Shown: one piece after another, positions 1 to 52,086 of the stretch | Layout of the letters: every line of letters begins with the position of its first letter | Position numbering within the stretch: position 1 is the stretch's first letter | Assembly: GCF_000337355.1 (NCBI RefSeq) | Contig: NZ_AOJH01000068.1 | Span: forward strand, 1-58,174 | Length of the DNA: 58,174 nt | Source of the DNA: Halorubrum kocurii JCM 14978 | GTDB taxonomy: Archaea > Halobacteriota > Halobacteria > Halobacteriales > Haloferacaceae | Direction of reading: 5' to 3' | Notes under the pieces: generated by a model | Seen by the model: only the letters and a program-made list of their open reading frames with translations | Database searches by the model: none | Told to the model about the DNA's origin: nothing | Program-made: the position numbers and the translations under genes

Positions 1-33
1 GGGCGACCGAAGGGAGCCCGAAGACGCGCCCGA

Positions 34-205
34 CGAGGCTGGGGAGGCGTGAGGTGCGGTTGCGGTGCTGGGTGGGGCGGGACTCAAAGGGGCAGTCGCG
101 AAGCCGCCGCAGACGACGCAAGCACCGGAACGAGTGAGCGGAGCGAACGAGGGAGGAGCACAGCGAGTGTGCGGCGGCTTCGCGGCTGGGGCTTTGGCGG
201 TGTTC
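34..205 (-). ncRNA. Candidate structured RNA, copy A of an intergenic repeat family
   Basis: Read on the minus strand, a TTATAA box (229-234) is followed after exactly 23 nt by the conserved 5' box GAACACCGCCAAAGCCCCAG, with +1 predicted near 205. A long stem follows (arms 170-196 and 85-111, 27 nt each, containing a CCC/CCC internal loop) around a 58-nt loop. Next comes the conserved 3' box CACGCCTCCCCAGCCTCG (about 34-51). Copies C, B and D are at 1997, 37256 and 50060. No plausible protein is encoded. Transcription is inferred only from the promoter geometry, and the 3' end is a guess. The element fills the gap downstream of cysS. Confidence 0.55.
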
Positions 206-228
206 GCCGCGGATCCGTCATCAGCCAT

Positions 229-234
229 TTATAA
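229..234 (-). promoter_or_regulatory. TATA box of repeat copy A
   Basis: TTATAA in the context CGCTTATAAATGG on the minus strand. It lies 23 nt before the conserved GAACAC box, which is the normal archaeal spacing from TATA box to transcription start. Confidence 0.5.
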
Positions 235-303
235 GCGAACGGCCGCGATTTCCGCTACTATCACCACACCGACAACCCCGCCGGCGAAACACGAAGTTCC
301 GTA

Positions 304-1996: not shown

Positions 1997-2060
1997 GAAC
2001 ACCGCCACAGCCCCAGCCGCACCGCTCCGCACAGCACCTCGCACCTCCCCAGCCTCGCCG
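1997..2060 (+). ncRNA. Candidate short RNA, copy C of the repeat family
   Basis: The copy begins with GAACACCGCCACAGCCCCAG and ends with the 3' box CACCTCCCCAGCCTCG (about 2042-2057), giving about 61 nt between boxes. It lacks the long stem of copies A and B. A six-base inverted repeat (CGCCGC/GCGGCG, within about 2056-2086) follows and could belong to the RNA or end it. It lies in the 378-nt gap between the cysS start (1818) and the ilvA stop (2197). No protein gene was found in that gap. Confidence 0.5.
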
Positions 2061-2177
2061 CTCGCTCCCTCCGGTCGCTCGCGGCGTCCCTCGCGCGTGC
2101 GACTCGCGCCCTGCGGGCGCTCGCCGGCACGCGCCACCGCAGTCCCATTTATAAACAGACGATTGCCTATCTTCACA

Positions 2178-35118: not shown

Positions 35119-35191
35119 TCTCGCGAGTGAACGCAGTGAGCGAGTGGGACCACGCGAGGGAACGACTAAGCGAACGAAGTGAGCGAAGGAG

Positions 35192-35263
35192 TGGACTCGC
35201 GGGGATTTGAACCCCGGGCCTCTTCCTTGCGAAGGAAGCGATCTGCCGCTGATCTACGAGCCC
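35192..35263 (-). tRNA. tRNA-Ala (anticodon CGC)
   Basis: This 72-nt cloverleaf lies on the minus strand. The acceptor stem GGGCTCG pairs with CGAGTCC, with one G-U pair, and the discriminator is A. The anticodon loop TTCGCAA reads CGC for GCG codons. The T-loop is GGTTCAAATCC with its stem GGGG/CCCC. The D-arm is GATCAGCGGCAGATC. CCA is not encoded. The 3' end has been used as an integration site (see copies at 34929 and 35105). Confidence 0.95.
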
Positions 35264-36307: not shown

Positions 36308-37026
36308 TGCGCGCCGACGCCGACGCCGAGGGCGACGCCGCCGGGTCCGCACCGGACGCGGCGGCCGACCCGGTCGAGTGCGCGCTCGACGCGTTCCGCG
36401 CGGGCGACCCCGTGTGCGTCCACGACTTCGCGGACCGCGAGGGGGAGACGGACATCGTCTACCCGGCCGGCGCCGTCGACGAGGCGGCCGTCGCCCACAT
36501 GCGCAACGACGCGGGCGGGCTGATCTGCGTGGCCGTGAGCGACGCGGTCGGCGACTCGTTCGACTTACCGTTCCTCGCGGACGCGCTCGACCACCCCGCG
36601 GTCGACGACGACCCCGAGTACGACGACCGGTCGTCGTTCTCGCTCCCCGTGAACCACCGCGAGACGTTCACCGGGATCACCGACGAGGACCGCGCTCGGA
36701 CCATCGTCGAACTGGCGAGCGCGGCGGCCGCCGTCGACGCCGACCCCGCGGGGTACGGCCCCGAGGACTTCGCCGCGGAGTTCCGCGCGCCCGGTCACGT
36801 CCACGTGCTGCGGGGCGCTCGGGACGGCTTGGGCGGCCGGACCGGCCACACGGAACTCGGGCTCGCGATGGCTGAGGCGGTCGACGCCGCCCCAGCCGCC
36901 GTCGTCTGCGAGATGCTCGACGACGAGACGGGCGCCGCGCTCTCGCCCGAGGACGCCGAGGCGTACGCCCGCCGGCGCGGGATCCCCTACGTCGAGGGGG
37001 CCGCGCTCGTCGAGGCGTTTAAATAA
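36307..37026 (+). CDS. ribB: 3,4-dihydroxy-2-butanone 4-phosphate synthase
   Basis: It converts ribulose 5-phosphate to the four-carbon unit of riboflavin. It has 239 residues. The acidic active-site loop reads DREGETDIVYPA, with RNDAGGLICVA, GITDEDRARTI and GRTGHTELGLAMA further on. An acidic Ala/Asp-rich extension of about 25 residues precedes the core. It overlaps rbkR by one nucleotide, so the kinase-regulator and this enzyme form one operon. Confidence 0.94.
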   Translation: MRADADAEGDAAGSAPDAAADPVECALDAFRAGDPVCVHDFADREGETDIVYPAGAVDEAAVAHMRNDAGGLICVAVSDAVGDSFDLPFLADALDHPAVDDDPEYDDRSSFSLPVNHRETFTGITDEDRARTIVELASAAAAVDADPAGYGPEDFAAEFRAPGHVHVLRGARDGLGGRTGHTELGLAMAEAVDAAPAAVVCEMLDDETGAALSPEDAEAYARRRGIPYVEGAALVEAFK

Positions 37027-37098
37027 CGAACTACGGTGCTGTCGGCGCGCGCCGCCGAACGGCCGCCTCCGGCGGCCGTGAGGTGCGCGTGCGAGGGA

Positions 37099-37256
37099 GT
37101 CGCTGGTGCCCGAAGCGAAGCGGAGGGTGCCAGCGACGAGGCTGGGGAGGCGTGAGGTGCGGTGCTGTGCGGTGCGCGGCGGGACTCAAAGGGGCAGTCG
37201 CGAGGACAGCGCACGCTCGCTGCGCTGTCCTCGCGACTGGGGCTTTGGAAGTGTTC
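37099..37256 (-). ncRNA. Candidate structured RNA, copy B of the repeat family
   Basis: The predicted +1 is near 37256, 23 nt after a TTATAA box (37280-37285). The 5' box GAACACTTCCAAAGCCCCAG leads into a perfect 19-pair stem (37221-37239 with 37195-37213) closed by a 7-nt loop. The stem extends past a CCC/CCC internal loop by five more pairs (CAAAG/CTTTG). The 3' box (37138-37163) is identical over 26 nt to copy A. A hairpin with G-U pairs (37099-37137) follows and may form the end. Confidence 0.6.
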
Positions 37257-37279
37257 TCCGCCGATCAGTGATTGAGTGT

Positions 37280-37285
37280 TTATAA
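37280..37285 (-). promoter_or_regulatory. TATA box of repeat copy B
   Basis: TTATAA in the context CGCTTATAAACAC, 23 nt before the GAACAC box. Confidence 0.5.
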
Positions 37286-37289
37286 GCGA

Positions 37290-37313
37290 GCGGCTGGGGC
37301 TGTGGCGGTGTTC
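37290..37313 (-). repeat. Half copy of the repeat family (5' box only)
   Basis: The minus strand reads GAACACCGCCACAGCCCCAG plus CCGC, matching the 5' box of copy C. It lacks the TTATAA at the 23-nt position and any 3' box. It ends 5 nt before the TATA box of copy B. Confidence 0.6.
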
Positions 37314-37417: not shown

Positions 37418-38347
37418 ATGGGATTCGACGAGATGGATGTCGACACGATCTGGAAGAACGGTGAGTTCCTCGACTGGGAGGACGCGACGACTCACGTTCT
37501 GACGCACGCGCTGCACTACGGGAGCGGCGTGTTCGAGGGTGTCCGCTGTTACGACACCGAACAGGGACCGGCGATCTTCCGCTGGGACGAGCACCTCGAC
37601 CGGCTGTTCGACTCCGCGAAGCTGTACGACCTCGAGATCGAGCACTCCCGCGAGGAGATCACCGAGGCGACCCTCGAACTGCTCAACCGACAGGACCTGG
37701 AGTCCTGTTACATCCGGCCGATCGCCTACTACGGCTACGACTCGCTGGGCGTCTCGCCGAAGGACTGCCCGACGGACCTCGTCGTCGCCGCGTGGCCGTG
37801 GGGCGCGTACCTCGGCGAGGAGGCCCTGGAGGACGGCGTCGACGTGATGGTCTCCTCGTGGCGGAAGCACGCCTCCTCGCAGGTGCCCACGAACGTCAAG
37901 ACCACCGGGCTGTACGTCAACTCCATGCTCGCGGGCGAGGAGGCCCGCCGCAACGGCTACGTCGAGGCCATCGTCCTGAACAAGGAGGGGAACGTCGCCG
38001 AGGGGCCGGGCGAGAACATCTTCATGGTCAACGACGGCGAGATCTACACCACCGGCCTCGCGCAGTCGATCCTCGAGGGGATCACCCGCGACACCGTCAT
38101 CGAACTGGCGGAAGAGCGCGGCTACACCGTCCACGACGAGGCCGTTATCTCACGGGGACAGCTGTACACCGCCGACGAGCTGTTCTTCACGGGCTCTGCG
38201 GCCGAGGTGACTCCCATCCGATCGGTCGACGACACGGAGATCGGCGCGGGCACCCGCGGCCCCGTCACGGAGGAGCTCCAGAGCGCCTTCTTCGATCTGG
38301 TGGAACGCCGGACCGACGACCACGACGACTGGTTCAAGTACTTATAA
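37418..38347 (+). CDS. ilvE: Branched-chain amino acid aminotransferase
   Basis: This fold-type IV PLP enzyme is the last step to Val, Leu and Ile. It has 309 residues. Visible are the HALHYGSGVFEGVRCY motif near residue 30, the Schiff-base lysine in NVKTTGLYVNSMLA near residue 160, EGPGENIFMV, and the LFFTGSAAEVTPI loop. The ATG at 37418 has a TATA-like GTTTTAAGC about 25-32 nt upstream, fitting a leaderless message. With ilvA in the same window it covers both ends of the isoleucine pathway, though the genes are not linked in an operon. Confidence 0.95.
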   Translation: MGFDEMDVDTIWKNGEFLDWEDATTHVLTHALHYGSGVFEGVRCYDTEQGPAIFRWDEHLDRLFDSAKLYDLEIEHSREEITEATLELLNRQDLESCYIRPIAYYGYDSLGVSPKDCPTDLVVAAWPWGAYLGEEALEDGVDVMVSSWRKHASSQVPTNVKTTGLYVNSMLAGEEARRNGYVEAIVLNKEGNVAEGPGENIFMVNDGEIYTTGLAQSILEGITRDTVIELAEERGYTVHDEAVISRGQLYTADELFFTGSAAEVTPIRSVDDTEIGAGTRGPVTEELQSAFFDLVERRTDDHDDWFKYL

Positions 38348-49925: not shown

Positions 49926-50002
49926 GCCAGGGATCGCGCGCGGGACGACGGACAGCTATATATAAACAAATATGTGGTGGCGCGCGCCTCCGAGCGGCCA
50001 TC

Positions 50003-50060
50003 GACGAGGTTGGGGAGGTGAGGGGTGCGGGGCGGTCGGGTGGGGATTTTGGCGGTGTTC
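50003..50060 (-). ncRNA. Candidate short RNA, copy D of the repeat family
   Basis: On the minus strand the box GAACACCGCCAAAATCCCCA starts at 50060, 23 nt after a TTATAA (50084-50089). A diverged 3' box CACCTCCCCAACCTCG ends near 50005. Like copy C it is the short form, without the long stem. Confidence 0.45.
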
Positions 50061-51745: not shown

Positions 51746-52086
51746 GCGACCCGGACGCGGAGCCCGACGGTGTCGAGCACGCAGCGAACCCCGACGTCCC
51801 CTCCGAGGCCGTCCTCGACGAGCTGTTCGCCACCATCGAGTCGCGGAAAGCGGAGCTCCCCGAAGGCTCGTACACCGCCTCGCTGTTCACCCACGAGAAG
51901 GGCGAGAACGCCGTCTTAGAGAAGCTCGGCGAGGAGTCCACGGAGACGATCCTCGCGGCGAAAGACGACGACCTCGACGAGCTCACCTACGAGGGCGCCG
52001 ACCTCGTCTACCACCTGCTGGTGCTGTTCGCGATGAAGGACCTCGACCTCGACGACCTGCGCGACGAGCTTCGGGACCGTTTTTAA
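51742..52086 (+). CDS. hisE: Phosphoribosyl-ATP diphosphatase
   Basis: It carries out step 2 of histidine synthesis. It has 114 residues; MazG-type helical fold: LDELFATIESRKAELPEGSYT, LFTHEKGENAVLEKLGEEST and YEGADLVYHLLVLF with the metal-binding Glu and Asp residues. The start is a GTG inside the pdxT stop region (overlap of 4 nt). An acidic N-terminal extension of about 22 residues is usual here. Confidence 0.94.
   Translation: MSDPDAEPDGVEHAANPDVPSEAVLDELFATIESRKAELPEGSYTASLFTHEKGENAVLEKLGEESTETILAAKDDDLDELTYEGADLVYHLLVLFAMKDLDLDDLRDELRDRF

What the first reader, a model, noticed from the sequence alone, without database searches (positions are those of the whole stretch)
37187..37247. 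Long stem in copies A and B with compensating base changes
Copy B has a perfect 19-pair stem, then a CCC/CCC internal loop and five more pairs. Copy A (85-111 with 170-196) has the same 27-nt arms and internal loop, but four stem pairs are changed on both sides (for example A-T to G-C), plus one G-T/A-C position. The loops differ widely (7 and 58 nt). Paired changes mean selection on structure, or repeated palindrome conversion.
Basis: seen in the sequence. Interest (0 to 1): 0.7.

Follow-up and report, generated by a model that had tools for sequence, protein, structure and literature searches.

The report
Folded repeat scattered through haloarchaeal chromosomes
The stem is one piece of a three-hairpin DNA repeat, present in dozens to over a hundred copies between the genes of many salt-loving archaea, whose sequence changes freely while its fold is kept, which suggests an old and apparently undescribed family of structured elements.

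Summary
This stem (H2) is part of a longer element: H0 hairpin, GCGAGGGA, H1 hairpin, G-rich linker, H2, tandem tail units. The window's genome has 73 copies, two relatives at least 150 each. It is in 52 of 52 genomes of the genus and 42 of 87 sampled genera of the order. Pairing is maintained: 93.7% of H2 arm cells are Watson-Crick in 102 copies, against 79.3% with arms shuffled; between genera the H2 base is CAAAG/CTTTG, CGAAG/CTTCG, GAAAG/CTTTC or GGAAG/CTTCC. A GA/GA mismatch persists in 88 of 106 genus H0 hairpins, which speaks against palindrome correction. Wobble bias points to the + strand, mainly at two positions. Best reading: an old REP/BIME- or MITE-like dispersed repeat selected to fold as a single strand; RNA or DNA is untested. 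No Rfam or literature match was found.

The parts
37044..37092 (+). Copy B, hairpin H0, with GA (37057-37058) facing GA (37080-37081)
   Evidence: Sequence; model match 37041-37195, 120 bits, E 4.8e-24; fold
37091..37098 (+). Copy B, invariant GCGAGGGA (its first two bases close H0)
   Evidence: Invariant columns of alignment A1
37099..37137 (+). Copy B, hairpin H1 (sequence hypervariable between copies, pairing kept)
37138..37186 (+). Copy B, G-rich linker GAGGCTGGGGAGG... up to GGGACT
   Evidence: Invariant columns of alignment A1
37187..37247 (+). Copy B, hairpin H2 (the finding): CAAAG, GGG, 19-bp stem, 7-nt loop, GGG, CTTTG
37248..37305 (+). Copy B, tail unit with TTATAA at 37280-37285, ending in a second, degenerate CTGGGGCTGTGG
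37018..37026 (+). TTTAAATAA just upstream of copy B, overlapping the stop of the preceding gene; possible left-end TATA-like box
   Evidence: Sequence; one search lists it. Role inferred only
1..34 (+). Copy A, part of H1 (cut by the contig end)
   Evidence: Sequence; truncated model match 1-93
35..84 (+). Copy A, linker
   Evidence: Sequence
85..196 (+). Copy A, hairpin H2: CAAAG 85-89, GGG, arm 93-111, 58-nt loop, arm 170-188, GGG, CTTTG 192-196
   Evidence: Sequence; fold
197..238 (+). Copy A, tail with TTATAA at 229-234
   Evidence: Sequence
2004..2138 (-). Copy C: H0, H1 and linker kept, H2 lost
   Evidence: Model match 82.1 bits, E 5.2e-16; sequence

Best explanation
Copies A and B are two members of an old, order-wide family of dispersed intergenic repeats of haloarchaea. 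Shown: the unit is H0 hairpin, GCGAGGGA, H1 hairpin, G-rich linker, H2 hairpin, tail; it occurs in tens to more than 100 copies between genes; stems change sequence while pairing is kept; specific non-Watson-Crick loops (GA/GA, GGG/GGG) are kept; sites are occupied in some species and empty or degenerate in others; in other genera H2 also occurs as a head-to-head inverted pair. Inferred: it behaves like a REP/BIME- or MITE-like element, a non-coding repeat that is copied or converted around the chromosome with help from a protein supplied elsewhere, and it must fold as a single strand (the + strand here) to be recognised. In some other lineages the element may ride inside inverted terminal repeats. 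The recognising protein, and whether the folded strand is ssDNA or RNA, are not known.
For: 73 copies in the own genome, at least 150 in two relatives, 52 of 52 genus genomes, 42 of 87 genera of the order sample. H2 arms 93.7% Watson-Crick against 79.3% shuffled; H1 8.04 of 9 against 5.78; compensatory H2 base between genera. GA/GA loop in 88 of 106, 4 of 18 and 15 of 38 H0 hairpins of three groups. Wobbles favour + (H2 40 to 10; H0 46 to 8); H2 folds better as + in 82 of 94. At one site 17 of 30 genomes have an intact element and 6 have none. Inverted H2 pairs at 32 of 134 motif occurrences in named loci, like BIMEs. Inverted GTGTTCAGATAAG-like ends around 9 of 159 elements outside the genus.
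Against: No transposase found: 0 of 10 Y1 transposase loci have the element in the flanks held, and G066 has 58 copies and no Y1 match. No target duplication seen. Copies at a shared site are no more alike than others (0.78-0.79 against 0.78), which insertion, conversion or saturation could each explain. The strand bias rests largely on two positions, and unregistered H1 counts run the other way (23 to 57). GA/GA is found in only 4 of 18 other-genus H0 hairpins. Elements are rare on plasmids, unusual for an active mobile element.
Confidence: 0.55

Rival explanations
1. A multi-copy structured RNA family: the + strand is transcribed as an RNA of roughly 200-350 nt (H0, H1, linker, H2) that acts in trans or binds a protein; the conserved linker and internal loops are the functional sites.
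For: Compensatory changes, wobbles and GA/GA loops on one strand; invariant unpaired motifs; TATA-like boxes on the left of 56 of 105 genus copies.
Against: No TATA-like box upstream of H0 in 60 copies of other genera and families. In the genus most boxes start 16-26 nt before H0, which would place a start site inside H0 (spacing rule recalled). Head-to-head H2 pairs without H0, H1 and linker. No Rfam match. No expression data available here.
Confidence: 0.25
2. Transcription terminator or insulator: the hairpins stop or stabilise transcripts at gene ends.
For: Convergent contexts 23, tandem 29, divergent 8 of 60 copies with both neighbours called; a hairpin upstream of a termination site terminated 59% of transcripts in Haloferax volcanii (passages of PMC7237163).
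Against: The + strand lies in the left gene's direction in only 34 of 60 copies, so the strand that looks selected is not consistently in a 3' UTR; avoidance of promoters alone gives the same context bias.
Confidence: 0.1
3. DNA-level palindrome correction (template switching or conversion between arms) keeps the stems matched, with no function.
For: H1 and the inner H2 hairpin are replaced wholesale while staying palindromic.
Against: GA/GA and GGG/GGG mismatches persist; wobbles are strand-biased; linker and GCGAGGGA, outside any stem arm or at its edge, are invariant across genera.
Confidence: 0.07

Closest known systems
Bacterial REP elements, BIMEs and REPINs with RAYT (Y1) transposases
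   Same: Many extragenic copies, hairpins, inverted pairs, stems that vary with pairing kept, as in the abstracts and passages of PMC2817692 (listing only), PMC3733652 and PMC12306157
   Different: Three hairpins over about 200-300 nt rather than 20-40 bp; no GTAG or CGTC tag seen; no Y1 gene beside copies; confined in our hits to haloarchaea
MITEs, PATEs and small mobile repeats (SMRs) of Haloquadratum walsbyi
   Same: Transposase-free repeats of a haloarchaeon; PATEs have palindromes, SMRs have inverted ends (passages of PMC3119063)
   Different: Those families are 5-6 per category in one species and defined by ends; ours is defined by a conserved three-hairpin core over many genera. Their sequences were not compared (supplement not readable here)
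Rfam structured RNA families
   Same: Compensatory stems and conserved unpaired motifs
   Different: No window match at gathering score other than a tRNA; best sub-threshold hit at copy B is sX7, 24.5 of 55 bits

Membership tests
REP/BIME (RAYT-associated) | High copy number, extragenic | tested here: met
   73 to at least 150 copies; 0 of 68 genus copies inside a called gene
REP/BIME (RAYT-associated) | RAYT (Y1 transposase) gene flanked by the repeat | tested here: not met
   0 of 10 Y1_Tnp loci have the element in the flanks held; G066 has copies and no Y1_Tnp match
REP/BIME (RAYT-associated) | Short 20-40 bp palindrome with a GTAG/CGTC-type tag | tested here: not met
   Element spans about 200-300 nt with three hairpins; definition from the abstract of PMC3733652
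REP/BIME (RAYT-associated) | Inverted pairs in alternating orientation | tested here: met
   32 of 134 motif occurrences in named loci have a head-to-head partner; not seen in the window's genus
MITE | Terminal inverted repeats shared with a transposon | tested here: inconclusive
   Inverted GTGTTCAGATAAG-like ends in 9 of 159 elements outside the genus; inward TTATAA boxes in the genus; parent transposon not searched
MITE | Target-site duplication | tested here: inconclusive
   None evident by eye in 38 genus copies, ends uncertain
Structured RNA family | Compensatory base changes over divergent genomes | tested here: met
   R-scape itself not run, phylogeny not weighted; does not distinguish RNA from ssDNA
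Structured RNA family | Transcription of the structured strand | not testable with these tools
   No expression data; promoter-like boxes not conserved outside the genus
Known Rfam family | Match above gathering score | tested here: not met

The most novel reading that the evidence does not exclude
The element is the gene of a class-wide haloarchaeal structured RNA, in over 100 copies, whose core is a G-quadruplex set into a helix: tracts GGG-N-GGG-ACTSAAA-GGGG-[H2]-GGGG bracketed by the H2 base helix, made very stable by the potassium-rich haloarchaeal cytoplasm, with expendable hairpins around it. The first three tracts are present in 102, 111 and 113 of 120 genus copies, 22 of 22 copies of other genera of the family, and 16, 15 and 26 of 27 copies of other families; the fourth is the GGG of the internal loop. 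Quadruplex formation and the potassium argument are inference and recall.
Probability: 0.15. Interest if true: 0.88.

Novelty: new variant of a known kind. Interest (0 to 1): 0.63.

Why it matters
If right, many haloarchaeal chromosomes carry a large, apparently unannotated family of folded elements that has kept the same motifs across many families. It would give archaea a counterpart of bacterial REP/BIME systems, apparently without the usual Y1 transposase, or else one of the more abundant structured RNAs of the domain. Either way the question (RNA or ssDNA, and which protein reads it) can be settled in laboratory haloarchaea.

Tried and rejected
Rfam: nothing but a tRNA in the window; low hits near copy B (sX7, miRNAs) rejected as chance. 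Minus-strand RNA with its own TATA promoter: considered first because a TATA-like box precedes CCAAAGCCCC; set aside because wobbles and GA/GA loops favour + and the box is missing outside the genus. CRISPR-like repeat (ACTGAAAG resembles a repeat end, from recall): set aside because the genus has ACTCAAAG with a compensating CTTTG. REP/RAYT membership: no Y1 gene beside copies. Viral carriage: 16 viral contigs with the 15-mer, 0 with an H2 partner; phages none. Regular spacing or strand order: none in G035 (100 of 103 copies). Sequence signal of vertical descent at shared sites: none. Target-site duplication: none seen. Literature strings: GACTGAAAGGGGC, GACTCAAAGGGGC and complements gave 2 unrelated papers; GGCTGGGGAGG with 'halo' gave PMC7565180 and three unrelated ones, where I read passages but did not see the place of the string; the end repeat gave nothing haloarchaeal. 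Other searches for haloarchaeal intergenic repeats, REPs and structured RNAs listed no paper whose title or abstract start describes this family; only PMC3119063, PMC7565180, PMC12306157, PMC3733652, PMC7237163 and PMC3990103 were opened, passages only. The MAFFT attempt was spoilt by chance matches; the fold-energy line is unusable; the H0 count (16 copies) used too strict a pattern and was replaced; one search did not measure the fourth G tract in the genus because its pattern missed CTTTG.

Full report
Observation. Copy B occupies 37187-37247 and copy A 85-196 exactly as described: 5-bp base, 3x3 internal loop, 19-bp stem, loops of 7 and 58 nt, four two-sided changes and one one-sided change. 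On the + strand the loop is GGG/GGG. Copy B folds far better than shuffled sequence (z -4.19).

The whole element. BLAST with 141 bases around copy B found 80 matches in the window's own genome, 40 of 94 candidates being scored. Reading 38 regions of that genome and 20 of two relatives showed a fixed order on the + strand: GGTGGCGCG, hairpin H0, GCGAGGGA, hairpin H1, GAGGCTGGGGAGGCGTGAGG linker, GGGACT, hairpin H2, then one to six tail units of about 57 bp that repeat the 3' base GGGGCTTTGG. Some copies lack a part or carry a different module on one side, and hairpin loops hold further hairpins in some. In alignment A1 of 49 chosen copies, GCGAGGGA and most of the linker are invariant. The window holds a third copy at 2004-2138 on the - strand with H2 lost, and a weak match at 49932-50056 (E 0.00019).

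Numbers and spread. BLAST finds the element in 52 of 52 genomes of the genus and, with an 88-base query, in 53 of 148 genomes and 11 of 28 genera of the family sample. R1 finds it in 140 of 293 genomes and 42 of 87 genera of the order sample. E-values of this model are rough and single weak hits may be chance, but 13 re-searched genomes gave 3 to 52 matches each, and most of the 30 loci read there show the linker, many with H2 (L181 and L195 did not show the linker in the frame printed). In those loci H2 closes with at least 8 pairs in 95 of 134 occurrences, 16 have the linker and 32 a head-to-head inverted partner (examples).

Replicons. All 100 G035 matches that I copied from the list lie on the 3.2-Mb contig of a 3.6-Mb genome, and the 10 listed of 16 in G085 on its 3.0-Mb contig of 4.3 Mb; G066 and G106 each have a listed match on another contig. 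Among 72,556 plasmid records the window copy hits 1, a Haloarcula copy 21 and a copy of another family 5, those listed being large haloarchaeal replicons. Phage records: none. Spacing and strand order along G035 do not differ from random (100 of 103 copies).

Structure under selection. H2: 102 unique genus copies, 12 pairs each, 1147 of 1224 cells Watson-Crick (93.7%) against a mean of 79.3% and maximum of 81.8% in 1000 arm shuffles; position 3 alone is C-G 43, T-A 37, T.G 20, C.A 2. Copies without a detectable right arm, with too short a loop or with N were left out. H1: read without gaps, 69.3% against 46.6% over 148 copies; with the offset free, 8.04 of 9 against 5.78 in 99 genus copies, 6.33 against 4.49 in 24 and 6.11 against 4.41 in 37 copies of other groups. 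A subset chosen for at least five pairs gave 792 of 805. Base of H2 in 240 copies, right side free: CAAAG/CTTTG 88, CGAAG/CTTCG 7, GAAAG/CTTTC 122, GGAAG/CTTCC 6, the rest mixed; all five positions pair in 96 of 103, 19 of 20, 9 of 10 and 103 of 107 copies of the four groups. These tests do not weight by phylogeny.

Against palindrome correction. Folding of unique H0 hairpins gives a 2x2 GA/GA internal loop in 88 of 106 genus copies, 4 of 18 in other genera of the family and 15 of 38 in other families; over the 107 cases the pair outside it is C-G 89, T-A 11, T.G 6, G-C 1. H2 keeps GGG/GGG (required by the search pattern). A process that copies one arm onto the other would tend to remove these mismatches.

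Which strand. G.T against A.C cells on the + strand: H2 40 to 10, H0 46 to 8, registered H1 6 to 3. Half of the H2 wobbles and 36 of the 46 in H0 sit at one pair each, so the effect rests on few positions and on related copies. In the unregistered H1 count the order is reversed (23 to 57); I take that for misregister, but it is no support. H2 folds better as + in 82 of 94 copies. This favours a selected + single strand, RNA or DNA.

Surroundings. By my own codon-based gene finder, 60 genus copies with both neighbours called lie between convergent genes 23 times, tandem 18 and 11, divergent 8; 8 more lack a neighbour; 0 of 68 lie inside a called gene. Copy B sits between the gene ending at 37026 and a gene at 37418-38347 whose protein matches branched-chain aminotransferases named ilvE in plasmid records. 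At that site 17 of 30 genomes have an intact element within 900 bp upstream of the gene, 2 have one interrupted by N, 4 have parts or remnants, 6 have none and 1 is unclear. Around the gene at 304-1818, 24 of 30 loci have at least one element. Copies at one site in different species share 0.78-0.79 mean identity, copies at different sites 0.78, copies within one genome 0.76-0.79, so hairpins turn over or convert quickly.

Ends. TATA-like boxes face inward at both ends in this genus: 56 of 105 copies on the left against 2 in a control stretch, and 71 of 176 tail units have TTATAA exactly 31 nt downstream; none lies upstream of H0 in 60 copies from elsewhere. Elsewhere 9 of 159 elements lie between inverted GTGTTCAGATAAG-like 13-mers. 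No target duplication was evident.

Mechanism. The most economical account is a dispersed repeat that must fold as a single strand to be recognised, as bacterial REPs and single-strand transposon ends do (general knowledge), with fast turnover of hairpins and strict upkeep of recognition motifs. It fails a REP membership test on the transposase and on size and tag. An RNA gene family is the main rival. No paper opened, or listed with a telling title or abstract, in the searches named in Tried and rejected describes this family; that library lacks most subscription journals.

Noticed in passing
window 2004-2138 (-): Third copy of the element in the window, with H2 deleted down to a GGCTGGGGCTGTGG remnant.
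   Followed up: partly
window 49932-50056 (+): Weak model match (27.5 bits, E 0.00019), perhaps a decayed copy.
   Followed up: no
window 35191-35263 (-) and 51852-51926 (-): tRNA-Ala (CGC) and tRNA-Glu (CTC) by ARAGORN; Rfam at gathering score reports only the first.
   Followed up: no
L119, L149, L153, L031, L013: A separate palindromic module (GGTCCCGCGAGCG...AACGTCTTCCGG) sits inside or replaces the linker in some copies, so the element is modular.
   Followed up: no
own genome G000, e.g. C68:1, C79:1, C52:1, C45:42423: Several contigs start or end inside copies, and runs of N occur within copies, so short-read assemblies break at this repeat.
   Followed up: no
L085, L093, L110, L227, L230, L262, L266, L338, L341: Inverted GTGTTCAGATAAG-like 13-mers bound the element outside the window's genus; a parent transposon was not identified.
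   Followed up: partly
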